Of a stretch of 64,000 nucleotides of DNA, positions 1 to 64,000 are shown piece after piece. The stretch spans positions 6,771,614 to 6,835,613 of the forward strand of contig NZ_AP018290.1 of the NCBI RefSeq assembly GCF_002368415.1, given 5' to 3'. This DNA comes from Calothrix sp. NIES-4105 (GTDB lineage Bacteria > Cyanobacteriota > Cyanobacteriia > Cyanobacteriales > Nostocaceae). The notes beneath the pieces were generated by a model that made no database searches, had not been told where the DNA came from, and worked only from the letters and a program-made list of their open reading frames with translations. The stretch's first letter is position 1; every line of letters begins with the position of its first letter. The position numbers and the translations under genes are program-made.

Positions 1-811
1 GTTCTTTAAAGGCGCCTTTTTCTTGTTTGAAGTTAAATAAATCTAATTGAACAGCATTTTTGTTTGATAAGTCTGATAAAATTTGTGATAGTTTTTTGTG
101 TATTGCGTCTTTGAAGAGTAATATTTCCCCTTTACAAAATCCCTTTTTGCCTCTCGAACGACTTGAACGAGAATCCCAGCGTAAATATTGACCATCTTTG
201 CGGGTATAGCTAATATCCTCAAGAATACAAAACGCTGCAAACAGTAAAATGTTACGTATATAAATATCTTGAATTTGTTTATTGCAGTAAGATATATAAC
301 CTACTAGTTCTACTTCTTGAGACTCTAGAAAGGCGCCACTGGTAATTGCTAGATGATTAAATGCGTACTGCTGGTCATAATAATCAGAAAAGTTTATTGT
401 TTTAATTTGGTTAATAATCAAACTTAATGCTTCTATATTTATTGCTCGTGCATTGATTTTTGCTTCTATGGCAAAAACACCAACGGGTAAAAGCTCAATT
501 CCTATAGTTTGCCAGTTTAAATCACTTACTGTAAATAATGATGTTCCGACTCCTGCAAAAGGGTCAAGTAAGGCGCCTGGTTTTGGTTTTAAAGTTTCAA
601 TTAGGTATGTAACGAGCTTTTCTGAAAACCCCTCTCGATATTTGAACCAAGAAAACTGAGTTTCTTTGTTAGCTTGAAAACTTACTAAAGTTCTATCTAA
701 ACAAGGGTTGTGAATAATTTTAGACTTGAATTTATTGTAAAGGGCGCCTCTTTGAGTATTAGAAGTTATTAATTGTGAGTCGCTTTTCTCTAAGATACTA
801 TTTTTATCCAT
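1..811 (-). CDS. DNA methyltransferase-like protein, 3' end outside window
   Basis: Reading leftwards from an ATG at 809-811 the frame stays open for 270 codons to the window edge, so the C-terminus is missing. Around residues 94-102 it has the motif DPFAGVGTS, which matches the S-adenosylmethionine binding motif I (DPFxGxGT) of N4-cytosine/N6-adenine DNA methyltransferases, followed by an IGIEL-type segment as expected for the next strand. The catalytic (D/S/N)PP(Y/F) motif is not in the visible part; with motif I first it would lie beyond the edge. A segment near residues 206-216 (KDGQYLRWDS) resembles similar methylases as I remember them. Target site unknown. It is the only candidate DNA-modifying enzyme in the window and so is relevant to the odd palindrome statistics. 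A short competing frame at 43-240 on the same strand is rejected. Confidence 0.62.
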   Translation of the reverse strand, partial: MDKNSILEKSDSQLITSNTQRGALYNKFKSKIIHNPCLDRTLVSFQANKETQFSWFKYREGFSEKLVTYLIETLKPKPGALLDPFAGVGTSLFTVSDLNWQTIGIELLPVGVFAIEAKINARAINIEALSLIINQIKTINFSDYYDQQYAFNHLAITSGAFLESQEVELVGYISYCNKQIQDIYIRNILLFAAFCILEDISYTRKDGQYLRWDSRSSRSRGKKGFCKGEILLFKDAIHKKLSQILSDLSNKNAVQLDLFNFKQEKGAFKE

Positions 812-911
812 TATTTAAAAACCTTATCAGTGCTGCTTCATAATAAATTTAGCATCTATCTAGCTTGTAAAATACTAAACAGGTGTTTGAAATTATTAGA
901 GATAATATCCA

Positions 912-1488
912 ATGAATCTACAAGTCGAATATAAAGATTATACAATTCAAGAATATTTAGAGTTTGAGGTTAACTCACCAGAACGACATGAGTATATTAA
1001 TGGCAAAATTATACTTAGGAGTGCTAATACACCTAATCATAACCAGATTGCTGGTAATGAAAGCTACTGCTCTCAATTTTGCTGTCAGGCGCCAATCTTA
1101 CCAAGTTTTCATCGTAGATCAAAGGTTATGGATTCCAAAAAAGTGTATTTATGCTTATCCAGATGTGATGGTAGTTCAAGGCGACTTACAAATGCAAGAA
1201 GGGCACCGGGATACAATAACCAATCCGTTAGTAATTGCTGAAGTTTTATCAAAATCTACTAAAAGTTATGATAAAGATGATAAGTTCGCTGCATATCGGA
1301 CTATTCCGACTTTTAAAGAATATATTTTAATCGACTAATACCAAGTACATGTCGAGCAATATTTTAAAACCGATGATAAGCGTTGGACTTTTACCGAGTA
1401 CGATGATTTGAATGAAACGCTTTGTTTAAATTCGATGGCTTTTGAAATAGCTTTGGCTGATGTTTATGACAAAATTCAGTTTGAATAG
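912..1488 (+). pseudogene. Uma2-family (DUF820) nuclease-like gene, broken
   Basis: The first frame begins at ATG 912 and reads as the start of a Uma2 protein (HEYINGKI near residue 31). After NQIAGN, near 1055-1062, homology continues in the next frame (ALNFAVRRQSYQVF), implying a small indel. That frame carries PDVMV and EVLSKST, the acidic residues of the PD-(D/E)xK-like fold, then meets TAA at 1336-1338 directly after YILID. Beyond it the same frame continues with family-like sequence (YQVHVEQYFKT) to TAG at 1486-1488. A CAA to TAA change would explain the stop. At least two lesions make a functional product unlikely. Uma2 genes are multicopy in filamentous cyanobacteria; another copy lies at 49374. 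Confidence 0.8.
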
Positions 1489-1530
1489 AAAGATTTAAGC
1501 CCAAAAATAGTTTAAACCCAAAAATAGTAT

Positions 1531-1547
1531 GGTGGGCAGTGCCCACC
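1531..1547. repeat. Dispersed palindrome, GTGGGCA-TGCCCAC family
   Basis: A perfect inverted repeat of the form GGTGGGCAGTGCCCACC, followed by CTACA. Near-identical copies occur at 23173, 57673, 57718 and 62724, with a half copy near 23354. All are intergenic, mostly just past a stop codon, like REP elements. Confidence 0.8.
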
Positions 1548-1560
1548 CTACAAATATCAA

Positions 1561-1627
1561 TTATCCGTTACATCCGTTTATAATCCGTTGCCATCTCTTC
1601 TCTGTGTCTCTGTGTCTCTGTGGTAAA
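1561..1627. repeat. Two dispersed repeats in tandem (ATCCGTTACATCC and CTCTGTGTCTCTGTGG)
   Basis: Positions 1561-1590 (ATCCGTTACATCC ... ATCCGTTGCC) are repeated in inverted orientation at 39741-39770 with one mismatch. Positions 1594-1627 (repeated TCTCTGTG units ending in TGTGGTAAA) recur at 23244, 26894 and 50971. Function unknown. Confidence 0.75.
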
Positions 1628-1676
1628 AAAATATATTGAATGCACATCTGAGACAGATGTGCTACAACTGGGGGGA

Positions 1677-2525
1677 TCACAATTTCCGAATTCCTTTTTC
1701 TATCCCCTCACAAACTCCCGTCAAAAAATCCAAATCCAAAGTATCAATAGTATCACTCGGCTTATGGTAATGAGGATTTCGCATATTAGCGGTATCGGTA
1801 ATCATTATCGCCGGATAACCTGCATCCCAAAATGGCGCATGGTCGCTGCGTCTCGTATCCCGCACAATTAAACCACGATTGGGTACTGGTAGCCATTGAC
1901 TTGGTACACCAACATTACGAATACTGCGGCTGAGAGATATTAAATCACGTAATGTTCGCCAGTTACCAATTAACGCGATAAAGTCACCTTTATTCGGATA
2001 AATTTTCTCTAATGGAGATGGGTACGACTGCGAGTTAGGTGTTTTTACACAGTACCCTAGCATCTCTAGCGATATCATTAATCTCAAAGGTTGCTTTTCT
2101 TCTTTGAGTTTTGCCGCGTAGCTGGTGCTTCCATGTAAGCCATATTCTTCCATGTCAAATGCTATGAGTCGCAAAGGATATTTAGCAGGTTTAGCAGTGA
2201 ACATCCGCGCGAGTTCGAGTAATACTGCTACACCCGTCGCGTTATCATCGGCGCCTGGGGAACCTAGTACAGCATCATAATGGGCGCCGATTAAAATTGG
2301 TGGCAAGCTAGCCTTTTCATACTCCACCTGACAAGGTAAATTCAATATGATATTGCTACAGTTTTTACTACTAACTTTGAAGGTGTGGATTTCCACACTT
2401 CCCCATTGGGAAAATGAAGTTTGAATGTACTGTTGGACAAAGAAATGTCCACCCGATGCTATATATGGGTCGCGGTCGCGAACAATTTGATTCAGATGAG
2501 TTTGCAATTGCGTCTTTAGGTTCAC
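1677..2525 (-). CDS. M28-family zinc metallopeptidase
   Basis: 282 residues. The metal-binding pattern of M28 aminopeptidases is visible: GAHYD (His82, Asp84), GADDNATG (Asp93), MEE (Glu126-127), an acidic residue in SLEMLG (Glu154) and a C-terminal NPHYHKPSD histidine. These residues normally bind two zinc ions and activate the attacking water to release N-terminal amino acids from peptides. No signal peptide or membrane segment is seen, so it is probably cytoplasmic. The start is GTG (2525); no internal methionine lies near the N-terminus and no strong Shine-Dalgarno sequence is visible, so the exact start is uncertain. It is divergent from dnaK. Substrate is unknown. Confidence 0.85.
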   Translation of the reverse strand: MNLKTQLQTHLNQIVRDRDPYIASGGHFFVQQYIQTSFSQWGSVEIHTFKVSSKNCSNIILNLPCQVEYEKASLPPILIGAHYDAVLGSPGADDNATGVAVLLELARMFTAKPAKYPLRLIAFDMEEYGLHGSTSYAAKLKEEKQPLRLMISLEMLGYCVKTPNSQSYPSPLEKIYPNKGDFIALIGNWRTLRDLISLSRSIRNVGVPSQWLPVPNRGLIVRDTRRSDHAPFWDAGYPAIMITDTANMRNPHYHKPSDTIDTLDLDFLTGVCEGIEKGIRKL

Positions 2526-2672
2526 GGAGTTAGAGGAGGGAAGAAGGGAAACAAAGGGGTGTGTATCACAAGCAGCCTTGATTCTTCATTTTTTCAAGTG
2601 CAAGATACAATAAATCAAGCATCAGAAGCTAAAAAATAGTTTTATTAAGACACATTAGGAGAACAGTAACGC

Positions 2673-4925: not shown

Positions 4926-4937
4926 TTATAGAGTAAT

Positions 4938-4953
4938 GGCGGGTTTTCCCGCC
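4938..4953 (+). terminator. Hairpin after dnaK
   Basis: GGCGGG-TTTT-CCCGCC, a perfect 6-bp GC stem 13 bp past the dnaK stop, followed only by TTT, so termination may be partial. Confidence 0.6.
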
Positions 4954-6936: not shown

Positions 6937-7209
6937 ATGTCTCATCTTTCTCCTGACACACCTTTATACAGCCATCCCCTGCCAGAAATTGAACAATGGC
7001 TGCGCGACCAAGGTTGTGAGCAAGACAACCAAGAACTACATTGCTGGCGCCTAGAAAAAACAAACTGGAACGCCCAATTATGGCTTGATGTCGAACAAAT
7101 TACAGTTCGATACATCCAAGCCGGAGAAAACGGGCAAGATATTCAGCGGTCGTTTAAATACTCGCTTTCTCGTCAAGATGTTGAACAAGCAGTATTTGCA
7201 GGACCCTAA
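6937..7209 (+). CDS. Small conserved cyanobacterial protein, probably DUF3143
   Basis: 90 residues, no signal peptide or membrane segment. The sequence (LPEIEQWLRDQGCEQD, CWRLEKTNWNAQLWLDVEQI, FKYSLSRQDVEQAVFAGP) matches my memory of DUF3143, a family found next to J-domain genes in cyanobacteria. It lies 98 bp downstream of the membrane J-protein and may be co-transcribed. Function unknown. Confidence 0.7.
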   Translation: MSHLSPDTPLYSHPLPEIEQWLRDQGCEQDNQELHCWRLEKTNWNAQLWLDVEQITVRYIQAGENGQDIQRSFKYSLSRQDVEQAVFAGP

Positions 7210-7218
7210 AGAAGTTAT

Positions 7219-7294
7219 GAGTAGAAAGTGCTGAGTGCTGAGTAATAATTTTCAATTTCCTACTCAGCACGACTCACTCAGTACTCAGCACTCT
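7219..7294. repeat. Heptanucleotide (TGCTGAG) inverted repeat
   Basis: AGTGCTGAGTGCTGAG on the left and CTCAGCAC...CTCAGCACTC on the right can form one long hairpin between two convergent genes. It belongs to the heptamer family also at 8991, 18113, 24953, 54127 and 61465, and could act as a bidirectional terminator. Confidence 0.8.
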
Positions 7295-8042
7295 AGGCTT
7301 TTCCAAACCGTCGCTCACGCTGTTGAAAACTTAACAACGCGCGGTGAAATTCATCGCTATTGAAATCGGGCCAAAGCGCATTTGTAATATATATTTCAGT
7401 GTAAGCAATTTGCCATAGCAGAAAATTGCTAATTCTCATTTCCCCGCTTGTGCGTATTAATAAGTCAGGGTCGCCAATGCCAGCTGTATAAAGATGACTC
7501 TCAAAAATTGACTCGTCAATTTCATCAGGTTTGAGCAAACCTTGCTCGACTTTTTGAGCAATTGCACGACAAGCTGATAATATCTCTTGCCTACCACTAT
7601 AATTAGTAGCAATGGTAAATTTGATACCGCGATTGTTCCGCGTTTCCTCCATTGCATGACTAATTTGCTCTTGCAAGGCATTGGGAAGTGCATTTAAATT
7701 ACCAGCAAACTTAATTCGTACACTCTCTTTCATCATCTCGCGCAACTCAGTACGCAAAACTACCTGAAATAAAGTCATTAAAAAATCAACTTCTTCCTGG
7801 GGTCGTTTCCAGTTTTCAGTTGAAAAAGCATACGCAGTTAACGCTTCTATTCCCCAATCATTACAGGTACGTAGTAATTGCTTGAGCGACTCAACCCCGC
7901 GTTTGTGACCCATGATACGGGGTAGTCCTCGCTGCCTAGCCCACCGACCATTGCCATCACAAATTACTGCAACGTGTTTTGGCAATAATTCGCGTTTCAA
8001 GTCAGAGGGTAAAACTCGCAGTTCTGTTTGTTGTGCTGTCAT
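7293..8042 (-). CDS. uppS: Undecaprenyl diphosphate synthase (cis-prenyltransferase)
   Basis: 249 residues, typical for the family. It extends farnesyl diphosphate with isopentenyl diphosphate in cis to make the C55 carrier lipid of cell-wall synthesis. Signature blocks: [13 protein letters not shown] with catalytic Asp29, [21 protein letters not shown], and [19 protein letters not shown] near the C-terminus. The ATG overlaps the stop of the upstream cdaA gene by four bases (ATGA, 8039-8042), indicating translational coupling. This cdaA-uppS order is common in cyanobacteria. Confidence 0.95.
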
Positions 8043-8959
8043 TTTTTATCCCGAGGAGCGGTCGATGGTAATCCGAGTAATCGTGAAACTACAAAGAGTG
8101 TCTTGCTACGAATTTTTCGCCCCAAACTTAGTAAACCAGGTGCAACTGCTTCCCGGTCAATAGTAGGTGACAGTTTCTCTTCTAGCAAATCTTTTAACTT
8201 CGCGATTGTTAATGGTCTATTTAGGGTTCCCCTTTCTGCCAAAGAAATTGAACCTGTCTCTTCCGATACAACTACACAAATACAATTTTCGACCCGCTCA
8301 GTGATACCCATCGCCGCCCGGTGGCGTGTGCCTAACTGGCGCGAGGCTGTGCGTCCCGATAGCGGTAAGATTATACCCGATGCGAGAATCCGAGAGCCAC
8401 GTACTAATGTAGCACCATCGTGTAAAAGTGTTTTGGGCTGAAAAATTGTTTGGATTAGTTCTTTAGAAACTTCAGCATTCAACCTAACTCCGGGTACAGA
8501 AAAATCTCGTTCGTCAATCGGACCCGTTGTTTCTATTATTAGTAGCGCTCCAATCCGATTTTTCGACAGTTCTTTAACAGCTTCGATAATTTCATCAATC
8601 GTGCTGTCTGACTTGGGAAGGGCAAGAGTTGAAGGCTGAAATAGCTTCTTAAACTCTCCTCGTCCCAATAACTCTAAAAATCTACGAAACTCAGATTGAA
8701 GTCCAACAGCCATTGCTACTGCACAGCCAATCACTAACTTTTCCAATACAAAATTTAGCAGTTCGAGCCTCCACTGCTGCGACAAAGCTGAAGCTAGCAT
8801 CAAGATGACAAATCCTAGCACCATCCGCAGCGTTCGCCGCTCGTTAATTAGAACCAGCATCATATAAGTCAGCGCCAGTACTAACGAAATATCCAGAGTC
8901 TTCAGTAGCAAGGACTGCGACCATCCCGCTATCAGCCATTGCTTCCACCAATCTCTCAT
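8039..8959 (-). CDS. cdaA: Diadenylate cyclase (c-di-AMP synthase)
   Basis: 306 residues. Hydrophobic segments in residues 17-90 form the membrane anchor; the DisA_N cyclase domain follows with the nucleotide-binding DGA (181-183) and RHR (212-214, [10 protein letters not shown]). It condenses two ATP into c-di-AMP, a messenger tied to osmotic, potassium and cell-wall control. The length is slightly above the usual CdaA because of a C-terminal tail (about 270-306). First gene of the cdaA-uppS pair with an ATGA overlap. Confidence 0.95.
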
Positions 8960-8990
8960 GACATCTGGAATGTACTACTCTAATCAAGTT

Positions 8991-9178
8991 AAAAGTGCTG
9001 ACTGCTGAGTATGGAGTTAAAAGTGCTGAGTGCTGAGTGCTGAGTGAGGAGTGCAAAATGCGTGCCTTCCAACTCATAACTTCCAACTCATAACTTCCAA
9101 CTCATAACTCCTAACTCATAACTCCTAACTTCCAACTCAGCACTCAGCACTCAGCACTCAGCACTTTCTACTCAGCAC
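8991..9178. repeat. Heptanucleotide repeat array with inverted arms
   Basis: The left arm holds AGTGCTGAGTGCTGAG, the centre repeats TAACTTCCAACTCA-like units, and the right arm holds CTCAGCACTCAGCAC four times. The right end runs into lysA and supplies its last codons (AGT GCT GAG TAG read on the minus strand). Confidence 0.85.
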
Positions 9179-10580
9179 TATTTTTGAGTCTTTCTGGTAA
9201 ACAATCTTGTCGAATTAAATCTTGATATGTTTCGCGTTGCAAAATAATATTTGCTTCACCGTTCGATACTAAGACCGCTGCTGGACGAGGCAGGCGATTA
9301 TAGTTCGATGCCATACTGTAATTGTAAGCACCCGTTGCCATTACTACCAAAATATCTCCTGGTTGAGTTTTTGGTAACACGGCATTCTTGATTAGAATAT
9401 CTCCTGATTCACAATGCTTTCCGGCAACTGTTATAGTTTCACTACACTCCGCCGACATTTTGTTCGCGACGACCGCGCGGTAAACTGATTGATAAGTAAT
9501 TGGACGAGGATTATCTGACATACCACCGTCAACTGCTATGTAGTTACGGATACCTGGAATTTGTTTTGATGAACCAATAGTATACGCTGTGATACAAGAT
9601 GTGGCAATTAAAGAACGTCCTGGTTCAGATAGTAGTTTGGGTAAAGGTAAAGAAAGTTTCTCACACGCGGATTGAATTACCTCGCAAATTGGTTTTACCC
9701 ACTCCTCAATACTTGGTGGGTCATCAGACTCTGTATATTTAGTTCCTAAACCACCACCAACATTTAATTCTTTTATAGATAAACCATAACTAGCTGCTTG
9801 CTCTAACCACTGCACCATTACCGCTGCTAAGTCACGATGTGGTTGACGTTCAAAGATTTGTGAACCAATGTGAGCATGAACTCCAATGCAGTTAAGCGCG
9901 CGTTGCTTACTGACATACGCAAATACTTCCCCAAGTTGGTTGGGGTCAAAGCCAAATTTACTGTCTAAATGCCCTGTACGAATATATTCGTGAGTGTGAC
10001 ACTCGATACCTGGTGTTAACCGCAGCATTATTCGTACTGGTTCCGAGGTAGTGGTTGGCGCGATTTCAACCAGTGTTTCTAGCTCATACCAGTTATCGAC
10101 GACAATAGTAATGCCTGACTCTATAGCAAAAATAAGCTCTTGGCGTGATTTATTATTTCCATGAAGATAAATCTTGTTAGGGTCTACGCCTACAGTCAAT
10201 GCTGTGTATAATTCTCCACCCGATACTACGTCAATACCTAAACCTTCAGCATGAACTATAGCGCAAACTGCCATTAAACTCCATGCTTTAGAAGCGTATA
10301 ATACCTGTGAGCAGCCCTTATAATAACGTTGGAAACTATCGCGATACTGGCGGCAAGCTGTACGCAAGGTTTCTTCGTCTACTATGTATAAAGGTGAGCC
10401 AAATTGCTGAACCAGATTTTTAACATCACAACCTCCAATTTCAAGATGGTCATGATTATTTACCTTCGCTGTAATCGGTAACAGAGATTGATTTGGAGAA
10501 ATATCAATGTTATTTTTTGTAACAATCGGTAAATATTTACTACCAGAATCTTGAACCCCAGCTGGATGTGTCGATACCAT
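9168..10580 (-). CDS. lysA: Diaminopimelate decarboxylase
   Basis: 470 residues from the chosen ATG (10578-10580). PLP enzyme of fold type III that decarboxylates meso-diaminopimelate to lysine. Visible: the PLP lysine in VLYASKAWS, the HAHIGSQI segment, the phosphate-binding GGGLGTKY, EPGRS, and the catalytic cysteine in CESGDIL. The frame continues 24 codons further upstream to 10652, but the family begins at MVSTHPAGVQ as I remember it, so the shorter start was taken. The C-terminus (KNSAE) is encoded by a heptamer repeat, so the natural end may have been replaced. Confidence 0.93.
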   Translation of the reverse strand: MVSTHPAGVQDSGSKYLPIVTKNNIDISPNQSLLPITAKVNNHDHLEIGGCDVKNLVQQFGSPLYIVDEETLRTACRQYRDSFQRYYKGCSQVLYASKAWSLMAVCAIVHAEGLGIDVVSGGELYTALTVGVDPNKIYLHGNNKSRQELIFAIESGITIVVDNWYELETLVEIAPTTTSEPVRIMLRLTPGIECHTHEYIRTGHLDSKFGFDPNQLGEVFAYVSKQRALNCIGVHAHIGSQIFERQPHRDLAAVMVQWLEQAASYGLSIKELNVGGGLGTKYTESDDPPSIEEWVKPICEVIQSACEKLSLPLPKLLSEPGRSLIATSCITAYTIGSSKQIPGIRNYIAVDGGMSDNPRPITYQSVYRAVVANKMSAECSETITVAGKHCESGDILIKNAVLPKTQPGDILVVMATGAYNYSMASNYNRLPRPAAVLVSNGEANIILQRETYQDLIRQDCLPERLKNSAE

Positions 10581-10737
10581 AACTTTGGAAAGTTGTCCTT
10601 TTTTAATTAACGCGGATGTAAGAAGCAGTTTGCTTTTAAGAACGTGAACCACTCCTTCTCTAAATTATTAAACTTTTGTAAATGAGTAAATATTCCCACC
10701 TCTAGTTTATAGATGGGATGCGCCATTACCAATAAGC

Positions 10738-11289
10738 GTGAACACATTAGATTTAGAAATCCAATCATTGACACATAAGCACTTGAGTGCTTTACTTCAA
10801 CTTGACCAAGCTTGTTTTGGCGGATTATGGACACTTGATGCGTATGAGCGAGAGTTAGATAGCCCGAACACCTTTCTGCTTGGTTCAATTAACCCGAATT
10901 CCTTAGATTTATCAGGAATGGGTTGTTTTTGGTCAATTTTGGATGAAGCGCACATCACTATTTTGGCGGTTCATCCTCAATATCAAAACCAAGGATTGGG
11001 ACAAGCTTTGTTATTTTCGCTTCTTAAGACAGCTTACGAACAAGGTTTAGAGCGAGCTACTCTCGAAGTACGTCCCTCGAATGTAGGCGCTATTACTTTA
11101 TATCAAAAATTTGGTTTTAAAACAGCAGGGCGACGGCGCCGATATTACAAAGACAACGATGAAGATGCCTTAATTTTATGGCTTGGTGATATTCAAACCC
11201 CACAATTCAACCGTACTCTTGATGTTTGGCTCGATACCATAAAAACGCGGCTTTATAAATCTGGTTGGAACTTGACATTTCCTAAATGA
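10738..11289 (+). CDS. rimI: GNAT acetyltransferase, RimI-like
   Basis: 183 residues, GTG start at 10738. The GNAT fold is visible: ITILAVHPQYQNQGLGQALL (acetyl-CoA binding V/I-x-x-x-Q-x-x-G-x-G/A), LEVRPSNVGAITLYQKFGF and RRRYYKDNDEDALIL. These match RimI, which acetylates the N-terminal alanine of ribosomal protein S18; the WTLDAYERELDSP start also fits. Divergent from lysA, leaving 157 bp with no obvious operator. A role on other proteins cannot be excluded. Confidence 0.85.
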   Translation: MNTLDLEIQSLTHKHLSALLQLDQACFGGLWTLDAYERELDSPNTFLLGSINPNSLDLSGMGCFWSILDEAHITILAVHPQYQNQGLGQALLFSLLKTAYEQGLERATLEVRPSNVGAITLYQKFGFKTAGRRRRYYKDNDEDALILWLGDIQTPQFNRTLDVWLDTIKTRLYKSGWNLTFPK

Positions 11290-18104: not shown

Positions 18105-18112
18105 ATAAGAGT

Positions 18113-18296
18113 TGAGAGTGCTGAGTGCTGAGTGCTGAGTGCTGAGTGCTGAGTTCTGAGTTCTGAGTGCTGAGTGCTGAGTGCTGAGTTGTAAGAATAA
18201 GATTAATAGTTTAATAGTGATTTCTAACTTCTAACTCCTAACTTTTAACTTCTACCTCCTAACTTTTAACTCAGCACTCAGCACTCAGCACTTTAC
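18113..18296. repeat. Heptanucleotide repeat array between convergent genes
   Basis: About eight GAGTGCT/GAGTTCT-type heptamers (18116-18190), a middle rich in CTAACTT units, then three CTCAGCA heptamers to 18292. The arms are complementary. The right end reaches the stop codon of the PBP gene. Confidence 0.85.
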
Positions 18297-21621: not shown

Positions 21622-21846
21622 CGATATCTTGCTCCGGGCGGGTTTACGATATATGCTCGTTACGTTTTAGGATATTTGTTAACCCGCTGCGCGCTCGAAC
21701 ATCTTGCTCCGGGCGGGTTTACGAGATATGCTCGTTACGTTTTAGGATATTTGTTAACCCGCTGCGCGCTCGAATATCTTGCTCCGGGCGGGTTTACGAG
21801 ATATGCTCGTTACGTTTTAGGATATTTGTTAACCCGCCCCTACGAG
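21622..21846 (+). repeat. Three tandem 75-bp repeats before pyrF
   Basis: CTTGCTCCGGGCGGGTTTAC starts at 21628, 21703 and 21778, exactly 75 bp apart, and the copies are nearly identical. Since 75 is divisible by three, the repeats remain open in the pyrF frame from an ATG at 21676, predicting repeated [14 protein letters not shown]; this is probably a by-product. The last unit ends in CCCCTACGAG just before pyrF. Confidence 0.92.
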
Positions 21847-41328: not shown

Positions 41329-42306
41329 TTAATAAAAACTTAGTTTCTTATATTCGTTTGCTGCTTCTTCTCCAAATCCTCCAGCTTCAATATGGCGAAT
41401 GATTGACTGCACAATAGGTACAGCAATGCTCATTCCAAATAAAGCATTAAATCCAGCAACTACGATAGGCGCCGATAATAGTGCAGTGAGTTCGGGAATT
41501 AGTGCTATGACAAGCACGAAAATTAAAAAGAAAACAGGAGCTGCAATACCTGTCTTAATAACTTCTTGGATAATTAAATCTTTATACTGCTCAACTGTAA
41601 TGTCTCCGCGATGCAAATCCAACGAGTAAGATATGGCAACAACTATTGCTTGAGTTAACATCGCGGCGCCAGTTGCTGTAATGCCAAGTTTGGCTATAGT
41701 AGCTGAATTCCTGAGTATTGAGTCAACTGCATTGTAAACGCGAATATAAGCCTGCTCACCCGGTGTCATTATATTGGCGCCACGACGGATATTATTGGTG
41801 CCTATTTCCCAAACTATATTATCGGCGCCATTACTGCCTCCCTTGGAGTGAGGATGAATATGGCTACCATGTTTGTCAGATAGGAATTGGCGAATGTCTC
41901 TTTCGGAGGCGCCTAACTTTGATGTACCTGGTATTTTGTTAAATAATTTCATTACATCCGCATCGCTTCTGGGAACTTCCCCAACCCTGACACCTGCTCT
42001 ATATTTCAACCTGTTAGCAATTCTGGGCATTTCAGCTAATAATTGCTGTGCTGTTTGGGGTAAGTCTTTGAGGGCGGCGCCAATAACTACACTTGATGTC
42101 GCGAATGCAACAGTTGTGGAAGCGGTGTTACTTATAGATTTTCCAGCGTTTTGAATTGCTTCGATACCTGGTTGGACTGTATTCGAGACTGACGCTATTG
42201 CTCCTGCAGTTGTATTCTCAACAGCAACCTTAATTTCATTCGCGGCGCCTGAAACACTGTTAATAGCATCCGCAGTACTTTTTTTAACTTTATTTATAAA
42301 TTCCAT
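41329..42306 (-). CDS. HNH-like nuclease motif joined to membrane helices
   Basis: 325 residues. The first 75 are Ala/Ser/Thr/Val-rich and amphipathic (ANEIKVAVENTTAGAIASVS). Residues 146-172 (KHGSHIHPHSKGGSNGADN, then IVW) match an HNH/His-Me finger core: paired histidines, a GGS turn and Asn163. Three hydrophobic segments follow at about 205-228, 252-270 and 275-300. There is no signal peptide. HNH domains cut nucleic acid with a metal ion; here attached to the membrane, the role is unknown. It lies next to an HTH-AAA ATPase on the same strand (106 bp gap) and could be its effector, which is inference. Confidence 0.6.
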   Translation of the reverse strand: MEFINKVKKSTADAINSVSGAANEIKVAVENTTAGAIASVSNTVQPGIEAIQNAGKSISNTASTTVAFATSSVVIGAALKDLPQTAQQLLAEMPRIANRLKYRAGVRVGEVPRSDADVMKLFNKIPGTSKLGASERDIRQFLSDKHGSHIHPHSKGGSNGADNIVWEIGTNNIRRGANIMTPGEQAYIRVYNAVDSILRNSATIAKLGITATGAAMLTQAIVVAISYSLDLHRGDITVEQYKDLIIQEVIKTGIAAPVFFLIFVLVIALIPELTALLSAPIVVAGFNALFGMSIAVPIVQSIIRHIEAGGFGEEAANEYKKLSFY

Positions 42307-42411
42307 TTTTATACTGCCAAGTTTTGATTATCAGTAATGTTTACAGCTTGGCATTACAATATCCGGTTTGTCTAGATTATAGGTATATATAGTTACATAA
42401 TTATTCTTTAG

Positions 42412-43695
42412 TCACTGAACAGCTGAAAAATATAGACGGTGCAACTTACATAAGGGCGCCACTTCATCTTCTTGCATTTGTATTAATCCAAGACTATGTA
42501 GCTTGAATTTGATAAAACTAGGTAATTTGACGTAGTTGGATGCAGTTGCGACTGCTTTCATCGCCGCTAATAATTCTGGCTGTTGGGTGAGAATAAGTAG
42601 TTGGCGCCGTAAATAGTCTTTATAAATTCCAGAATCACTCGCTGCTGTTTGTAGTACTTGCGGTAAGTCAACATCACCGTGCGTTATATAATAAAGGGCA
42701 AGGCGAACCAAAAAGGGGTGTCCTCCTACCATTTCCATTAACTGTTTTACCTCTACATCACTCCATTTAAGCTGATGGCGCCTTGTTAACTCTAATATCT
42801 GTTCAAGGGTAAATTCTGGTAACTCGATTGGTAAACCCACATTAAAAGGAGATTGGTTAATATCCAAAGGTACGTAAACTTCGGTTGAGTGAACAATTAT
42901 CAACCGTAATTTTTTCCAAATATCTCGACGTTTAGCTTCTTCATGCAGCGCGCGTAATAGCCCAAAAAAGTCTCGATAGATATCTGGATATTCAAAAACC
43001 CTATCAACTTCATCTAAACCTAGAGTCAACGGTTTATCGAGCGTAGGTAGCAAGTACTCTTCAAAATAAGCCTTGCAAGCCATGTTACTACCTAAGATAC
43101 CAGCTAAATCCCAGTAATTATCTAGCTGATTTGGGATATTTACCGTTTTGGCAACACTTGCACAGAACCAACGCAGGAATTTATCAGCACTAGTAAAAAT
43201 TTGTTGTGAAGCAAGTTGAAAATCTAAAGTTACAGCATAACTACCATGAGATTGAGATTCATTAAGGATTCTTGCCATTAAGGACGTTTTACCCATTTGT
43301 CTAGGCGCCTTAATACGAATTAATGAACCAAGCTTTTTAATTTCTTCATAGCAACGTGTTTCAATTGGCGGACGATTAATATAATAAGGAGAATTTAACT
43401 CAACTTGACCCTCTGGAAGCTCTAATTGATAAGGTATATTTTGCTGTGAGGGTAAAACAACAGATTCATTTTCATTTGAAAGATTAGCGACATCCTGCCA
43501 TTCGAGTCCCAGCGTGCGGCAAATTTCAGTAAAGTTTAAAAAATCCACAGGTCTACCATTAAGGAAACTGCTTACTGTAGATTGAGAGATTTGTAAACTT
43601 TCCGCTAAATCACTTTGACGAACATAACCATTACGCGGTAACGCTGATTTTACCTGTGATATGCACTCTGGACGTACTCGAATTGAACGTGGCAT
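42412..43695 (-). CDS. HTH plus AAA-like (AAA_35) ATPase
   Basis: 427 residues. An N-terminal Cro/XRE-type helix-turn-helix (about 20-70; RQSDLAESLQISQSTVSSFL) is fused to an AAA_35-type ATPase: Walker [13 protein letters not shown] (about 129-140), Walker B PLTLGLDEVDRVF (about 205-217), and the family block PFNVGLPIELPEFT. A winged-helix-like C-terminus follows (GGHPFLVRLALYYI). This group is multicopy in filamentous cyanobacteria with unknown function; the ATPase is the same kind as that in the 45397 protein. It is divergent from the TacAT-like pair. Confidence 0.85.
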   Translation of the reverse strand: MPRSIRVRPECISQVKSALPRNGYVRQSDLAESLQISQSTVSSFLNGRPVDFLNFTEICRTLGLEWQDVANLSNENESVVLPSQQNIPYQLELPEGQVELNSPYYINRPPIETRCYEEIKKLGSLIRIKAPRQMGKTSLMARILNESQSHGSYAVTLDFQLASQQIFTSADKFLRWFCASVAKTVNIPNQLDNYWDLAGILGSNMACKAYFEEYLLPTLDKPLTLGLDEVDRVFEYPDIYRDFFGLLRALHEEAKRRDIWKKLRLIIVHSTEVYVPLDINQSPFNVGLPIELPEFTLEQILELTRRHQLKWSDVEVKQLMEMVGGHPFLVRLALYYITHGDVDLPQVLQTAASDSGIYKDYLRRQLLILTQQPELLAAMKAVATASNYVKLPSFIKFKLHSLGLIQMQEDEVAPLCKLHRLYFSAVQ

Positions 43696-57735: not shown

Positions 57736-57742
57736 TTACATT

Positions 57743-59353: not shown

Positions 59354-59707
59354 TTAGTATTGAGGAATAGAAGGGTCAACTAAGCTAGAATAAGCTGCTA
59401 TTCCACCTGTAATATTTTTAACATTCGTGAAGCCTTGATTTACAAGCCATTGGCACATTTGAGCGGAACGAACGCCATGATGGCATAGTACTAGAGTTTC
59501 TATATCGCTCTCAAAGCGCGCGTGGATTTGAGATTCCCAAGCTGCGAATTCACTCAAAGGGAGGTTGACAAAACCGTCTATGTTAGCAATTTCAATTTCT
59601 TGTGGTTCGCGAACATCAATAAGCTGAATTTTGTCGGCGCCTTTGGACAACCGCTCTTGTAATTGTTCAACGGTAACTTGGGAGAAGGGTGACGGATATT
59701 GTGGCAT
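59354..59707 (-). CDS. Rhodanese-domain protein
   Basis: 117 residues, a single rhodanese domain. IQLIDVREPQE is the N-terminal signature, and the active-site loop is CHHGVRS with the catalytic cysteine near residue 75; GGIAAYS closes the domain. Single-domain rhodaneses transfer sulfane sulfur; the acceptor is unknown. Confidence 0.9.
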   Translation of the reverse strand: MPQYPSPFSQVTVEQLQERLSKGADKIQLIDVREPQEIEIANIDGFVNLPLSEFAAWESQIHARFESDIETLVLCHHGVRSAQMCQWLVNQGFTNVKNITGGIAAYSSLVDPSIPQY

Positions 59708-59813
59708 TTTACTACTTAATTTTTTATTAACAATTATATTTCTTATCTTACCGCTTTCCCCTTGACCCTTTCCCCTTTACCCTAAGAGTTGTTGGCAGTG
59801 GATTATAGAATAT

Positions 59814-61454
59814 ATGACGAAATCATTCATTCGTCTTTTTGCAGCAAGCTTGGTTATGCTGCTCCTTAGTATTACAAGCTGTGCAGAAGCATTGGCAGCA
59901 AGTCCGTTTGGTAAGGAAAATCTAATAGAATCTAACTCGGCAATATTTGTGTCAAAGCAGGCGCCTGTGATGATATCTATATTGAATCCAGAACGGTTAC
60001 AGTCGTTAGATAAGCCTGGATACTCGTTTCTTAAGGCAGATTTTTTTAAGAATTCTGGTTTTAATTTTCGTGAAGACGTTCAACCTTGGCTTGGAAACGA
60101 AGTTACACTTGCCGTCACTAGTTTAGACTTTGACCGTGACCCTGATAATGGTAAGTTACCTGGATATTTGCTTGCTATGGCGACTAAATCACCAGAAAAA
60201 AGCCGTGAGTTTGTCCAGCTATTTTTCTCAAAACGGGTTTTGGCAGGCGCCGAATTAAGTGTGGAAGAGTTTGCAGGTATAAAAGTTATCTCTGATGCGC
60301 CGAATAATAAAGCAACGCTTGCTGGTGCAGTAGTTGGTGATAAGTATGTTTTGTTTGCAAACGACCCGAAAGTATTGCGTGAAGCTATAAATAATGCTCA
60401 AGCACCCGATTTAAGTTTAACTTCAGTGAAGAAATATGAAGATATTAAACAAGTATCACAAAAATCGCTTGGTGTGGCATTTTTTAATCTTCCAATCGTG
60501 GCAGAATGGCTTGGTTTGAAGCTACCTATACAAAACTTTGATGAGCAATCTGTAGCACTGTTGCCAGTTTCAAAAGGTTTACTTGCTCAAACAGTAGCAT
60601 TATCGACTCAAGAAATGTTGGCGCCATTAGAGTCATTGTCGAAACCTGTAGATGCACTTAAATATATTCCAGCAAACGTTGGTATTGCAGTTGGGAGTAC
60701 AGATTTAAGTAATTTATCTGACAGCAATTTAGCGATGTTTTGGCAGCAACTAAAAAGTGTGTTGTCACCCCAAGGAGAAACGAATGCAGGAATTAATCTG
60801 AATTTTAGTAATTTTGTGCAGCAAGACGCAGAAGCTCAAAAACTTTCGAGCATAGACTTATCAAAAGATATCTTCAATTGGGTACAGGGTGAATATGCTA
60901 TTGGCTTGATATCATCTGGACAATCACCTGAATGGATTTTTGTTACAGAAAAGGCGCCTTCTACACAAGAGGGTATAGCAAACCTCGATTCAATCGCAGC
61001 TAAAAACGGGTTAAGTGTTACTGAGTTCAGCTTGTTTGACAAACCAATTGTAGCTTGGACACAGTTAAAAGCAACAGATGCGAATAAGAGTGGTAAACCG
61101 TCTTTTAGTATTGAAGCAAAAGCTTATGGAGTACATACGACTTTAGATAACTACGAAATTTTCACTTCATCCTTAGAGACTATGTACGAAGTCCTCACAA
61201 TCAAGGATAATGCATTATTAGAAAACCGCAATTTTAAGAATAGTATTGCAGCGCTTCCTGAATCAAACGCTGGTTACGTCTACATTAATTGGGTAACTAG
61301 TCAGGGTATTCTAGAGCGACAGATACCTATACTCAAGCTGCTTAAACTAGTCGCTAAACCTTTCTTTACCAATTTGCGCTCTTTGACCATCACTAACTAC
61401 GGTAGTGATACTAACTCACTCAAAGGTGATGTGTTTTTTCAACTTGAAGAATAA
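59814..61454 (+). CDS. DUF3352 lipoprotein candidate
   Basis: 546 residues. The N-terminus has a lipobox ITSC with the candidate lipid cysteine at 23. The body (DVQPWLGNEVTLAV, VLFANDPKVLREAINNA, IFNWVQGEYAIGLI) matches DUF3352, a cyanobacterial family of unknown function. It is followed by a heptamer repeat. Confidence 0.82.
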   Translation: MTKSFIRLFAASLVMLLLSITSCAEALAASPFGKENLIESNSAIFVSKQAPVMISILNPERLQSLDKPGYSFLKADFFKNSGFNFREDVQPWLGNEVTLAVTSLDFDRDPDNGKLPGYLLAMATKSPEKSREFVQLFFSKRVLAGAELSVEEFAGIKVISDAPNNKATLAGAVVGDKYVLFANDPKVLREAINNAQAPDLSLTSVKKYEDIKQVSQKSLGVAFFNLPIVAEWLGLKLPIQNFDEQSVALLPVSKGLLAQTVALSTQEMLAPLESLSKPVDALKYIPANVGIAVGSTDLSNLSDSNLAMFWQQLKSVLSPQGETNAGINLNFSNFVQQDAEAQKLSSIDLSKDIFNWVQGEYAIGLISSGQSPEWIFVTEKAPSTQEGIANLDSIAAKNGLSVTEFSLFDKPIVAWTQLKATDANKSGKPSFSIEAKAYGVHTTLDNYEIFTSSLETMYEVLTIKDNALLENRNFKNSIAALPESNAGYVYINWVTSQGILERQIPILKLLKLVAKPFFTNLRSLTITNYGSDTNSLKGDVFFQLEE

Positions 61455-61464
61455 AAGAAGAGTT

Positions 61465-61535
61465 GAAAGTGCTGAGTGCGCTCGTGCTGAGTAACGGTAA
61501 GAAAATACTCAGCACTCATTACTCAGAACTTTTCA
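61465..61535. repeat. Heptanucleotide hairpin after DUF3352
   Basis: AAAGTGCTGAGTGCGCTCGT, then GCTGAGTA, opposed to ATACTCAGCACTCATTACTC; a hairpin like the other heptamer copies. Confidence 0.75.
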
Positions 61536-61643
61536 CTTCGTTATTGTGTCAGATTATTCTCTGTCACATCCCCTAAGTTCTTCAATGTTGTTTTCAGTTA
61601 TTATATGTATATAACTTTACTCACATACCGTTGAAGGGCTGCT

Positions 61644-62174
61644 ATGAACAAACGTCAATCTCGACTATTACCAGCCTTGCGATTCAACCAATCCCATTGG
61701 CGGAATGCTTGGTCAAAAGGCGGATGGCTTTTGGGTATACTTACGGGCATTATCTCGGTTCCAGTACTGGCTGATACAGCAAACTTCGGTACAGTTAGTT
61801 TGGCACCAGGTTTTGATACTGCCACTAGTTTAGTATCAGGGTATACAGGTGGTTCTTATTCGCTATCCGCTATTACCAACCGCGATGTCAACAACAAAGT
61901 TTGTATTGGGTTTGCTGACCCAACACCCGACCATATTATAGTTTTGCAAAAAAATTTTTCTAATTTAAGAATTGCTGTAGATAGTAGTGGTTCTGATACT
62001 ACGCTTTTAGTTCAGGCGCCAGATGGAAAAATTTACTGTGGTGATGACACTGGTAGACTTAAAGATGCCAGCGTTACACTAAGTCAATGGCAAGAAGGAA
62101 GTTATAAAGTCTGGGTGGGGGTTTTTAACCCTGGTGTCAAAATAAATTACACTTTATCAGTACAGCAACCTTAA
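61644..62174 (+). CDS. Secreted protein with a PPC-like beta domain
   Basis: 176 residues. A signal peptide is likely (GGWLLGILTGIISVPVLA, about residues 26-43). The mature part has LRIAVDSSGSDTTLLVQAP, DGKIYCGDD and WQEGSYKVWVGVFNPG, resembling pre-peptidase C-terminal-like beta sandwiches; two cysteines may pair. Function unknown. Confidence 0.7.
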   Translation: MNKRQSRLLPALRFNQSHWRNAWSKGGWLLGILTGIISVPVLADTANFGTVSLAPGFDTATSLVSGYTGGSYSLSAITNRDVNNKVCIGFADPTPDHIIVLQKNFSNLRIAVDSSGSDTTLLVQAPDGKIYCGDDTGRLKDASVTLSQWQEGSYKVWVGVFNPGVKINYTLSVQQP

Positions 62175-62178
62175 TTTT

Positions 62179-62207
62179 CTTGTGGAACGGGCATCCTTGC
62201 CCGTCTC
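62179..62207. repeat. CTTGTGGAACGGG palindrome copy
   Basis: CTTGTGGAACGGGCATCC, then TTGCCCGTC; the ACGGGCA/TGCCCGT arms pair, 5 bp past the stop. Confidence 0.75.
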
Positions 62208-62209
62208 AA

Positions 62210-62599
62210 TTACGTTTTTGAATGTAGTTCTTGTAACCTTACTTTCGCGTCTTTGTAACTGTCTTCTTCACCTCTATCTTGAAATAATTGGGCTGCTTTC
62301 TCAAAGTCACTTATAGCCTCAGTAACTTTTCCCAAATCGGTAAGCACTAATCCCCGATTATAGTAAGCTGAAGCGTATTCAGGATTTATTTCAATTGCTT
62401 TCGTATAGTCTTTAATAGCATCTTGCATAGAACCACGTTCGATATTCGCATTACCTCGGTAGTTATAAGCAGATGCGTTATCTGGTTTTAATGCAATTGC
62501 TTTGTTAAAGTCAGAGAAGGCGCCTATAATATCATTGTTTTTCAAGCGAAAGTTACCCCAATGAATATAAGTATCGGGAAACTTGTCATCGAGTAACAC
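62210..62599 (-). CDS. TPR protein, probably shortened at the N-terminus
   Basis: 129 residues. Three TPR units are visible (GAFSDFNKAIALKPDNASAY, DAIKDYTKAIEINPEYASAY, EAISDFEKAAQLFQDRGEE). A stop lies two codons before the GTG used as start, and the N-terminus begins in mid-repeat with no signal peptide, so the gene may be a truncated copy of a longer secreted TPR protein. Partner unknown. Confidence 0.65.
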   Translation of the reverse strand: MLLDDKFPDTYIHWGNFRLKNNDIIGAFSDFNKAIALKPDNASAYNYRGNANIERGSMQDAIKDYTKAIEINPEYASAYYNRGLVLTDLGKVTEAISDFEKAAQLFQDRGEEDSYKDAKVRLQELHSKT

Positions 62600-62924
62600 T
62601 AATCAAATGTAAATATTTGAGTGTATTAAAACAGACATTATAATTAATTTGTTTTAAAATATTTAAAATTATGAAATATACGATTAAAAAAATTAAATTA
62701 TATACTCTTTAAATATCACGTAAGGTGGGCACTGCCCACCCTACAGATGCTAAAGTGATTAATGACACAATCGGAAGCGAGTTTTTACTTAAATGACGTG
62801 AATAAAATAATTTTAATGTTTTTTATGAACAATTGTGGTGGTTCAGGAGCGGAGAAGCCACAATATAAGAACAAGCTTTCATATATTAAGGTCTTAGCTT
62901 GACATACAGGAGTCTGTAAAAAAA
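62600..62924. other. Intergenic region before putA with a palindrome copy
   Basis: 325 bp. GGTGGGCACTGCCCACC lies at 62724-62740; CAGGAGTCTG lies just before the putA start. The rest is AT-rich. Confidence 0.65.
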
Positions 62925-64000
62925 GTGGTTTTACAAGCAGAAACAAGCACTTACGAAGCTAAAACTCAAGAGATTGCTCAAAAGCTTCTCGCAGCTACCC
63001 AAGAAAATCGTTCGTTTTTGGCAAATCTCCGCGACCAGATGCGCTGGGATGATAAATTGCTAGCTTGGGCAATGAGTAACCCCGGTTTACGGGTGCAGCT
63101 ATTTCGTTTTATTGATACTTTACCCGCGTTACATGATAAATCTGAGATTGCCGCGCATTTACAGGAATACCTTGGTGATGAGTCGGTAGAACTACCTGCT
63201 GCGCTTAAAGGGATGTTAAACTTTGCCAATCCTAATTCGGCGCCAGGTCAGTTGGCAGCAAGTACAGTTATAACTGCCACAGAAACATTAGCGCATAAGT
63301 ATATTTCTGGTGAAAACATTAAGCAAGTGTTAAAAACTATTGAACGCTTGCGTAAGGATAAAATGGCTTTCACGGTAGATTTACTTGGTGAAGCTGTTAT
63401 TACCGAAACTGAAGCTCAATCGTATCTTGAGCGCTATATCGATTTGATGCAGCAGTTAACCGAAGCGTCTAAGAGTTGGAGTAAAGTCCCATTAATTGAC
63501 GAAGCTGATGGAGTATCAATACCCCAGGTACAAGTTTCAGTCAAGTTAACAGCATTTTACTCGCAGTTTGACCCATTGGATGCTACGGGCAGTGAAGAAA
63601 AGGTAAGTTCGCGCGTTAGAACTTTATTACGACGTGCAGGAGAACTTGGCGCCTCTGTTCACTTCGACATGGAGCAGTACGCTTATAAGGATATTACTTT
63701 TATTATCCTCAAAAAGATTTTGATGGAAGAGGAGTTTCGCTCCCGAACTGATGTTGGGATGACGGTTCAAGCTTATCTCCGTTCGGGTGAGCAAGACACG
63801 CGCGATTTAATCGCTTGGGCAAAACAGCGAGGATATCCGGTTACAATTCGTCTAGTTAAAGGCGCTTATTGGGATCAAGAAACAATAAAGTCAATGCAAA
63901 AGCATTGGCAGCAACCAGTTTACAACGATAAAGCCGCAACCGATGCTAACTTTGAGGCTATAACTCAGTTGTTGCTGGAAAATCATCAATATATATATGC
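62925..64000 (+). CDS. putA: Proline dehydrogenase/P5C dehydrogenase, 5' part
   Basis: The frame opens at GTG 62925 behind AGGAG and runs through the window edge (358 codons visible). The visible part is a proline dehydrogenase (FAD, TIM-barrel) domain: LLGEAVITETEAQSYLERYI, QVSVKLTAFYSQFDP, HFDMEQYAYKD and IRLVKGAYWDQE. It oxidises proline to pyrroline-5-carboxylate; in PutA a C-terminal aldehyde dehydrogenase then makes glutamate. The C-terminal domain is outside the window, so bifunctionality is inferred from cyanobacterial relatives. Confidence 0.9.
   Translation, partial: MVLQAETSTYEAKTQEIAQKLLAATQENRSFLANLRDQMRWDDKLLAWAMSNPGLRVQLFRFIDTLPALHDKSEIAAHLQEYLGDESVELPAALKGMLNFANPNSAPGQLAASTVITATETLAHKYISGENIKQVLKTIERLRKDKMAFTVDLLGEAVITETEAQSYLERYIDLMQQLTEASKSWSKVPLIDEADGVSIPQVQVSVKLTAFYSQFDPLDATGSEEKVSSRVRTLLRRAGELGASVHFDMEQYAYKDITFIILKKILMEEEFRSRTDVGMTVQAYLRSGEQDTRDLIAWAKQRGYPVTIRLVKGAYWDQETIKSMQKHWQQPVYNDKAATDANFEAITQLLLENHQYIY

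What the first reader, a model, noticed from the sequence alone, without database searches (positions are those of the whole stretch)
1..64000. GGCGCC is massively over-represented and may replace HIP1
Reading the whole window I count about 85 copies of GGCGCC, while about four would be expected at about 40% GC if bases were independent. Copies lie in all three codon frames (Gly-Ala GGC GCC, Arg in xGG CGC Cxx, Ala-Pro in GCG CCx) and also in intergenic DNA, so codon use does not explain them. GCGCGC/CGCGCG runs also look frequent. Many cyanobacteria carry the palindrome HIP1 (GCGATCGC) at such density; here it was not seen. A HIP-like system built on another core is inferred.
Basis: partly seen in the sequence, partly recalled or inferred. 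Interest (0 to 1): 0.85.

Follow-up and report, generated by a model that had tools for sequence, protein, structure and literature searches.

The report
Genome-wide GGCGCC palindrome replaces HIP1
One six-letter palindrome, GGCGCC, is written thousands of times too often into the genomes of one genus of filamentous cyanobacteria in place of the motif their relatives use, and it is probably kept there by DNA methylation with directional repair or by selection; the motif was first reported in a sister strain in 2015, but comparing the whole genus makes its cause testable.

Summary
The count is right: 87 GGCGCC in the window against 3.8-15.8 expected by null model; 18,131 in the 12.04 Mb genome; HIP1 only 125. 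It is the alternate HIP that Elhai (2015) described in Calothrix PCC 7103, a congener, so the kind is known. New here: (1) all 7 held genomes of the genus carry it and none of 210 other family genomes does. (2) It fills 39-56% of coding positions that could spell it synonymously; HIP1 fills 72-76% in two HIP1 genera. (3) Sites are retained at homologous positions well above expectation. (4) Relative to expectation the central C (GG-C-GCC) changes about three times more than the other wobble bases in close pairs, an excess gone at 85% identity: a footprint of 5-methylcytosine with restoration. (5) All 7 carry a solitary 5mC methyltransferase of the BsaHI/HindVP (GRCGYC) lineage; beside a HindVP gene elsewhere, GGCGCC is nearly erased. 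(6) Occupancy does not rise away from other sites, against the published 1-kb set-point. Against: polarised loss rates equal controls, and protection is weak in comparisons with the most distant species. Biased repair or selection is open. No methylation data were available.

The parts
1..64000 (.). 87 copies of the palindrome GGCGCC spread over the window, about one per 740 bp, in all three codon frames and in intergenic DNA
41468..42782 (.). densest cluster: 10 GGCGCC sites (first at 41468, last starting at 42777) in two adjacent minus-strand genes, one without a Pfam hit and one AAA_35
7052..11134 (.). longest GGCGCC-free stretch of the window (4.1 kb, over undecaprenyl-diphosphate-synthase-, DAC- and decarboxylase-type genes); no GATC in the same gap

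Best explanation
GGCGCC is the genus's highly iterated palindrome, in place of HIP1. Shown: it is genus-wide, retained at homologous sites above expectation, fills about half of the coding positions that can spell it synonymously, and coexists in all 7 genomes with a solitary 5mC methyltransferase whose homologues often sit beside HindVP-type genes. Inferred: this enzyme, left over from a restriction-modification system whose nuclease gene was lost, methylates the central C (GG-m5C-GCC). Methylated C deaminates often to T, giving GGTGCC/GGCACC, and a methylation-dependent directional process restores C and protects the other bases. Over time this writes GGCGCC wherever the protein code allows, up to a limit set by coding capacity. 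Whether the directional step is biased mismatch repair or gene conversion, or selection for a function of the sites, is not settled. HIP1 was probably lost when GATC became strongly depleted.
For: Clade: 7 of 7 genus genomes 7,475-20,380 copies; of 210 other family genomes the maximum is 1,053 (G133, whose reversed control is 1,270). Site retention against context- and codon-matched expectation: 0.83/0.66, 0.86/0.61, 0.77/0.31, 0.60/0.20 at about 94-95, 92-93, 85 and 81% identity. Per-base O/E of substitution inside sites, ingroup pairs: wobble C6 0.25, G2 0.29, C5 0.18, G1 0.19; wobble C3 0.73, G4 0.57; nonsynonymous C3 1.41 and 2.00; at 85% identity the wobble excess at C3/G4 is gone (0.35, 0.37 against 0.26-0.35). 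Polarised: C3>T 15 vs C6>T 3 of 198 (p 0.006); G4>A 13 vs G1>A 4 of 118 (p 0.04); nonsynonymous transitions 7 of 564 at C3/G4 vs 3 of 1196 elsewhere (p 0.015). The only polarised gains seen, 3, came from GGTGCC/GGCACC. Gly-Ala pairs: GGC GCC 1115 (expected 31.6), GGT GCC 117 (134). Methyltransferase in 7 of 7, HindVP in 0 of 7; the six HindVP-bearing genomes of 60 have 3-88 GGCGCC. M.BsaHI was shown to methylate the central C of GRCGYC (PMC2413257); RIMS-seq lists GRCGYC as the 5mC motif of H. influenzae Rd (PMC8565308, one passage). Occupancy 39-56% vs 0-0.4% in two HIP1 genera.
Against: No methylation data; target assigned by homology. Polarised loss of GGCGCC (108 of 948, 0.114) is not below that of all other G/C-only words (200 of 1784, 0.112) or xGCGCx words (86 of 852, 0.101); I think this control is biased towards slow positions, but it does not show protection. 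Against G001 (81% identity, 77-112 sites) wobble C3 mismatch is 0.35, not levelled off, and frame-2 sites show no protection (O/E 0.91-1.93). The solitary enzyme is not sufficient: G027 has it without HindVP and has 277 GGCGCC, and four loci of homologues without HindVP lie in genomes with 144-277. The genus has other 5mC methyltransferases (17 PF00145 matches in G000), and one further set (about 370 aa) is also in 7 of 7. No Vsr in 7 of 7, so the repair enzyme is unidentified. Polarised losses outnumber gains 54 to 3, which I read as parallel regain misleading parsimony, but a real recent decline is not excluded. The loss factor predicted under pure selection from occupancy (0.06) is lower than the 0.18-0.29 observed. 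HindVP itself and a Crocosphaera relative showed no nuclease activity in vitro (PMC2413257), so the family name does not prove an active nuclease.
Confidence: 0.55

Rival explanations
1. The sites are kept by selection for a function (recombination, nucleoid structure, a methylated binding signal); methylation only adds mutability at the central C.
For: Wobble bases at all motif positions change below expectation in close pairs, and sites are retained at 81-85% identity. Gly-Ala occupancy corresponds to a selection-like coefficient of about 4.2. Conservation of HIP1 sites was taken as evidence of selection by Xu et al. 2018 (recalled; not found in the library).
Against: Occupancy does not rise far from other sites. 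Wobble C3 mismatch hardly grows between the close pairs and 85% identity (0.105 to 0.130) while its expectation grows from 0.144 to 0.366, as expected of restoration; against G001 it is 0.35.
Confidence: 0.33
2. Elhai's G-meC-directed mismatch-repair ratchet: biased repair makes GGCGCC from GRCGYC-like near misses until about one site per 1000 nt is reached, then stops.
For: GGCGTC/GACGCC and GACGTC are depleted (O/E 0.41, 0.16), though restriction in the past would do the same; density is about 1.5 per kb; the central C fits the methylated base he required.
Against: Occupancy is the same 200-499 bp (879 of 1441) and 500-999 bp (369 of 609) from the next site and lower beyond 1 kb (65 of 141), the opposite of a set-point, although acquired islands lower the last figure; HIP1 is flat too. 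The alternate HIP is clade-wide, not sporadic. No conversion from a position-2 near miss was seen in the polarised data, but GACGCC had n of only 2. A MutH-type nickase was not searched for.
Confidence: 0.15
3. Codon usage, base composition or dispersed repeats explain the excess.
For: 40 of 87 window sites are Gly-Ala GGC GCC.
Against: GGC is 12% of Gly codons (before G-starting non-Ala codons) and GCC 11% of Ala codons (not after Gly), yet GGC GCC is 49% of Gly-Ala pairs. The three frames are about equally filled (49, 47, 55%), and sites lie at homologous positions of aligned genes.
Confidence: 0.01

Closest known systems
GGCGCC alternate HIP of Calothrix PCC 7103 (and D253), Elhai 2015, PMC4390886
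   Same: Same motif, same loss of HIP1, GATC and CGATCG depletion, GRCGYC-type methyltransferase present; PCC 7103 is G004 of this genus.
   Different: Here genus-wide in 7 genomes, with site retention, occupancy, a mutation footprint at the central C and a candidate solitary enzyme; his points on sporadic occurrence, a second enzyme copy as trigger and a 1-kb set-point are not supported.
HIP1 (GCGATCGC)
   Same: GC-rich palindrome, about 1 per kb, all frames, most or half of synonymous-capable positions filled (HIP1 72-76%, GGCGCC 39-56%); copies 10-19 bp apart are scarce in both by occupancy, though for HIP1 not significantly in the within-gene shuffle.
   Different: Different core and presumed methyltransferase. 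HIP1-capable peptides are 4.1-4.5 per 1000 codons in two HIP1 genera vs 1.6-2.4 here, while GGCGCC-capable ones differ little. GGCGCC shows a within-gene spacing deficit at 20-59 bp that HIP1 does not.
BsaHI / HindVP restriction-modification systems (GRCGYC)
   Same: Homologous methyltransferase with the same residues around the TL motif; HindVP-family gene beside homologues in other cyanobacteria.
   Different: No HindVP gene in 7 of 7 genus genomes; sites enriched instead of erased.
Vsr very-short-patch repair beside Dcm in E. coli
   Same: Works like it if T opposite G is turned back to C in a 5mC target, enriching the methylated word (recalled).
   Different: No Vsr gene in 7 of 7; wobble bases other than the methylated one are held too.

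Membership tests
HIP class (highly iterated palindrome, sensu Elhai 2015) | palindrome over-represented far beyond composition and Markov expectation, genome-wide | tested here: met
   18,131 copies; pooled O/E 34 with the motif masked, second order
HIP class (highly iterated palindrome, sensu Elhai 2015) | found where HIP1 is low or absent | tested here: met
   HIP1 31-163 per genome in 7 of 7
HIP class (highly iterated palindrome, sensu Elhai 2015) | a methyltransferase able to modify it is encoded | tested here: met
   by homology only: 7 of 7
HIP class (highly iterated palindrome, sensu Elhai 2015) | the sites are actually methylated | not testable with these tools
   no long-read or bisulfite data; indirect footprint
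HIP1 proper | core GCGATCGC at high density | tested here: not met
   0 in window, 125 in 12.04 Mb
GRCGYC 5mC methyltransferase (BsaHI/HindVP lineage) | 5mC methyltransferase fold and catalytic motifs | tested here: met
   PF00145 1.2e-65; PPCQ and ENV motifs
GRCGYC 5mC methyltransferase (BsaHI/HindVP lineage) | target-recognition residues shared with enzymes beside a HindVP gene | tested here: met
   alignment of 25 sequences: Arg-Arg-(Ala/Gly) upstream of TI/TV in 22 of 25 and Asn-Arg-Pro downstream in 25 of 25; the published motif figure itself was not seen
GRCGYC 5mC methyltransferase (BsaHI/HindVP lineage) | methylates the central C | tested here: inconclusive
   mutation footprint at C3/G4 agrees with M.BsaHI biochemistry
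HindVP restriction-modification system | cognate nuclease PF09519 | tested here: not met
   0 of 7 genus genomes
Vsr short-patch repair | Vsr nuclease PF03852 | tested here: not met
   0 of 7
Chi-like or uptake signal | dependence of recombination or uptake on the site | not tested
   needs experiment

The most novel reading that the evidence does not exclude
HIP motifs are the product of a solitary restriction-type 5mC methyltransferase coupled to an undescribed, Vsr-independent directional repair: the methylated C mutates often and is put back, other bases of the word are held, and the word spreads to synonymous positions until coding capacity, not a 1-kb set-point, stops it. Losing the nuclease of a GRCGYC system turns its target from a forbidden into a compulsory word.
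Probability: 0.3. Interest if true: 0.8.

Novelty: new member of a known kind. Interest (0 to 1): 0.52.

Why it matters
Why cyanobacteria repeat one palindrome about once per kilobase has been open since HIP1 was described in 1995. A whole genus that swapped the word while keeping the behaviour separates what belongs to the word from what belongs to the mechanism, gives a candidate methylated base and a candidate enzyme, and yields numbers (occupancy, behaviour of the central C, distance independence) that any model must meet. PCC 7102, 7103 and 7716 are named strains, so the tests are practical.

Tried and rejected
Rejected: composition or codon bias; a Vsr-based copy of E. coli short-patch repair (0 of 7); a large proteome drive by GGCGCC. 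In one search the figures made GGCGCC-capable positions look twice as dense in the genus as in HIP1 genera; that was an artefact (positions in a genome piece without any copy were dropped), corrected.

Rejected: regular 1-kb spacing. Variance/mean of counts per 5 kb is 1.47, 0.93, 2.21 and 0.70 in G000, G002, G004 and G006, and occupancy is not higher far from other sites. The apparent exclusion at 60-199 bp is not kept when labels are shuffled within genes in G000, G002 and G004; it remains only in G001 (14 against 21.6).

Weak points: ORFs were called by a simple longest-ORF rule; alignments cover mostly conserved coding DNA; pairs among 7 genomes are not independent; the HIP1 comparison rests on two genera (G032, G035). 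Rows dropped: alignment blocks under 300 bases (under 500) or under 72% identity (75%), and words with gaps or N. HindVP frames are not all whole: in G026 the match holds two stops and in G025 it is in two pieces.

Full report
Observation. The window holds 87 GGCGCC and no GCGATCGC. The genome (12,037,678 bases, 8 contigs) holds 18,131 GGCGCC, against 7 for the reversed word CCGCGG, and 125 GCGATCGC against 75 for its reversed word. In 1.75 Mb pooled from seven genomes of the genus, GGCGCC occurs 5,380 times (both strands) against 156 expected from a second-order model built with the motif masked, the highest O/E of the 64 palindromic hexamers; next is CGCGCG at 4.7. The host is a cyanobacterium (psbA in the window; apocytochrome f).

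Distribution. In 60 relatives, 7 of 7 genomes of the genus have 7,475-20,380 copies (1.15-1.71 per kb by the listed sizes); the largest count outside is 2,493 in G043. In 217 family genomes, 7 of 7 genus members and 0 of 210 others exceed 1,053. HIP1 counts are 31-163 in the genus. PCC 7103 is the strain in which Elhai (PMC4390886, parts 1-6 of 8 read) reported GGCGCC as an alternate HIP. So the phenomenon is not new, but his statement that exceptional HIPs occur sporadically, not in clades, does not hold for this one. Of the papers listed by my searches only his treats this motif as a HIP; subscription papers are mostly not held.

Coding capacity. At coding positions where synonymous choice alone could spell GGCGCC, the word is present in 494/968, 150/385, 618/1146, 121/216, 533/1107, 133/268 and 182/368 (G000 to G006), against 2/495 and 0/485 in two HIP1 genera. 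HIP1 fills 164/215 and 171/238 of its own capable positions in those genera and 0-3% here. HIP1-capable peptides are 4.1-4.5 per 1000 codons in the HIP1 genera and 1.6-2.4 here; GGCGCC-capable ones are 9.1-9.4 and 9.5-10.5. GGCGCC has therefore been written mostly by synonymous change; the Gly-Ala dipeptide is slightly commoner here (2289 against 2148 expected; 547 against 621 in the HIP1 genera), and the gene sets compared are not orthologous. In Gly-Ala pairs GGC GCC is 1115 of 2289 where 31.6 are expected from codon use elsewhere.

Conservation. Homologous GGCGCC sites are retained at 0.83, 0.86, 0.77 and 0.60 where 0.66, 0.61, 0.31 and 0.20 are expected from trinucleotide and codon-position rates, at about 94-95, 92-93, 85 and 81% identity (counts there take both directions and both strands, so n is inflated). 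Controls: in close pairs AGCGCT (0.90/0.72, 0.76/0.67) and TCGCGA (0.86/0.74, 0.78/0.68) are also somewhat above expectation. At 85% GGCGCC is at 2.5 times expectation, the 17 other words at 0.76-1.76. At 81% it is at 3.1, but GGCGGC, CGCGCG and GCGGCG reach 2.6, 2.4 and 2.2, so the contrast is weak there. GGTGCC is short-lived: retained 0.35-0.38 where 0.64-0.69 is expected in the close pairs. A result against protection: in the polarised count, where the ancestral word is the one shared by G000 and all other aligned ingroup species, GGCGCC is lost at 108 of 948, no less than other G/C-only words (200 of 1784) or xGCGCx words (86 of 852). That control is conditioned on words unchanged between G000 and the ingroup, which favours slow positions for ordinary words more than for GGCGCC, but I did not correct for it.

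Footprint of the methylated base. In close pairs the other wobble bases change at 0.18-0.29 of expectation, the central C and its partner G at 0.57-0.73 when at a wobble position and 0.59-2.00 when not (other non-wobble bases 0.24-0.77); at 85% identity the wobble values converge (0.26-0.37), the non-wobble ones at C3/G4 stay high (0.77-2.49). Against G001 frame 2 shows no protection at all (O/E 0.91-1.93, 77 sites), while in frames 0 and 1 the wobble bases are still slow (C6 0.52, G2 0.20, C5 0.19, C3 0.74). With polarity from G000, C3>T outnumbers C6>T 15 to 3 of 198 and G4>A outnumbers G1>A 13 to 4 of 118; of 54 losses 35 are to GGTGCC/GGCACC and all 3 gains come from there. Frame-0 C3 mismatch goes from 104 of 988 (0.105) to 70 of 539 (0.130) while its expectation goes from 0.144 to 0.366; C6 goes from 0.054 to 0.121. 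Against G001 C3 mismatch is 39 of 112 (0.35), so it is not level there. The ratio GGT GCC: GGC GCC is 117: 1115. I read this as a fast flip between m5C and T with strong return to C within the closer species, weaker in or towards G001, which also has the lowest occupancy (0.39). Selection with a more mutable central base would give a similar picture.

Enzyme. Of the 5mC methyltransferases of the genus, two ortholog sets occur in 7 of 7. One (L071:6799-7794, minus strand; 80-90% identical to G000 in the other six) has no nuclease-like neighbour and lies between a GHL10/SLH gene and a RuBisCO-like gene; the same two neighbours flank it in six genomes. In G006 the complete copy is elsewhere, and fragments of another lie at two contig ends. 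Among 13 loci of homologues in other cyanobacteria, a gene of one cluster precedes the methyltransferase in nine, seven of them of 290-366 aa and two short (199 and 170 aa), and is missing in four; the three of these genes that I scanned are HindVP family, PF09519. HindVP is found in 6 of 60 relatives and 0 of 7 genus members; the six have 4, 3, 6, 12, 88 and 11 GGCGCC. The seven loci with the longer gene lie in genomes with 1-28 GGCGCC, the two short ones 166 and 45, the four without it 259, 277, 144 and 263. G027, with a homologue and no HindVP, has 277 and may be one of those four. Low counts also occur without HindVP, so other systems erase the word too. [quoted passage not shown] RIMS-seq lists GRCGYC for H. 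influenzae Rd (PMC8565308, one passage). Elhai wrote that no methylation site was known for this specificity; that 2008 paper had shown one. The other 7-of-7 set (370-398 aa) has unknown specificity and remains a candidate.

Tests of the published model. Occupancy of capable positions by distance to the next copy: 0 of 33 at 6-9 bp, 12 of 116 at 10-19, 175 of 489 at 20-59, 213 of 486 at 60-99, 515 of 942 at 100-199, 879 of 1441 at 200-499, 369 of 609 at 500-999, 65 of 141 at 1000-1999, 3 of 96 beyond. HIP1 is 42 of 56 at 20-59 and 0.70-0.83 from there to 2 kb. A set-point of one site per kb predicts a rise with distance; islands of acquired DNA can lower the last bins. Shuffling within genes keeps the deficit at 10-19 bp (6 observed, 21.5 expected over G000, G002, G004) and 20-59 bp (70 against 105); HIP1 shows none at 20-59 (22 against 20.8). 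Hairpin avoidance could explain the closest range. G001 and G003 have a single enzyme of this family at E 1e-60 and still the motif, so a second copy is not needed. Vsr is absent in 7 of 7.

Loss of HIP1. GATC O/E is 0.18 and CGATCG 0.25 in the pooled genus DNA, though a D12-type (Dam-like) methyltransferase of 351-355 aa is in 7 of 7; its specificity was not tested. This fits Elhai's order of events: GATC depletion first, replacement second. The largest GGCGCC-free island in the 400 kb of G000 examined has 18 GATC in 10.4 kb (1.73 per kb against 0.60) and 2 HIP1, as expected of recently acquired DNA.

Verdict. Real and strong; known in kind since 2015, but better resolved here: clade-wide, retained by site, apparently limited by coding capacity, with a probable methylated base and a probable enzyme. 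The directional step is inferred, and repair versus selection is undecided.

Noticed in passing
genus pool, all palindromic hexamers: Extreme depletion of many palindromes: GTGCAC 0 of 481 expected, TTCGAA 8 of 1313, GTCGAC 2 of 301, CCGCGG 6 of 194, CCATGG 8 of 423, TGCGCA 18 of 928 (both strands).
   Followed up: no
window 8986-9180 and 18105-18294: Stretches rich in heptamer tandem repeats (AGTGCTG, ACTCAGC, GAGTGCT) that match many places in G000 and G002, mostly over 100-200 bp: a dispersed repeat family.
   Followed up: partly
G000:C1 near 6884213 (10.4 kb), 6683991, 6852561: GGCGCC-free islands; two of these three have raised GATC: absence of GGCGCC could serve as a clock for recent acquisition.
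   Followed up: partly
G000 smaller contigs C2 and C3 (L025, L032, L038): 27 GGCGCC in 13.4 kb of these plasmid-size contigs, so the process is not confined to the large contig.
   Followed up: partly
window, CGCGCG and GCGCGC: CGCGCG O/E 4.7 and GCGCGC 2.4 in the genus pool, without the site retention of GGCGCC in close relatives.
   Followed up: partly
G028 (same family), G042, G053, G055: Low HIP1 (535, 134, 206, 673) and no GGCGCC excess like the genus's: possible further alternate HIPs.
   Followed up: no
window 21626-21837: 75-bp tandem repeat, 2.8 copies, at the 5' end of the orotidine decarboxylase ORF; the protein match starts only at residue 63.
   Followed up: no
L072:9481-11457, L073:5673: A second, 658-aa methyltransferase lies close to the solitary one in PCC 7102 and PCC 7103; its ortholog set occurs in 5 of 7 genus genomes.
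   Followed up: no
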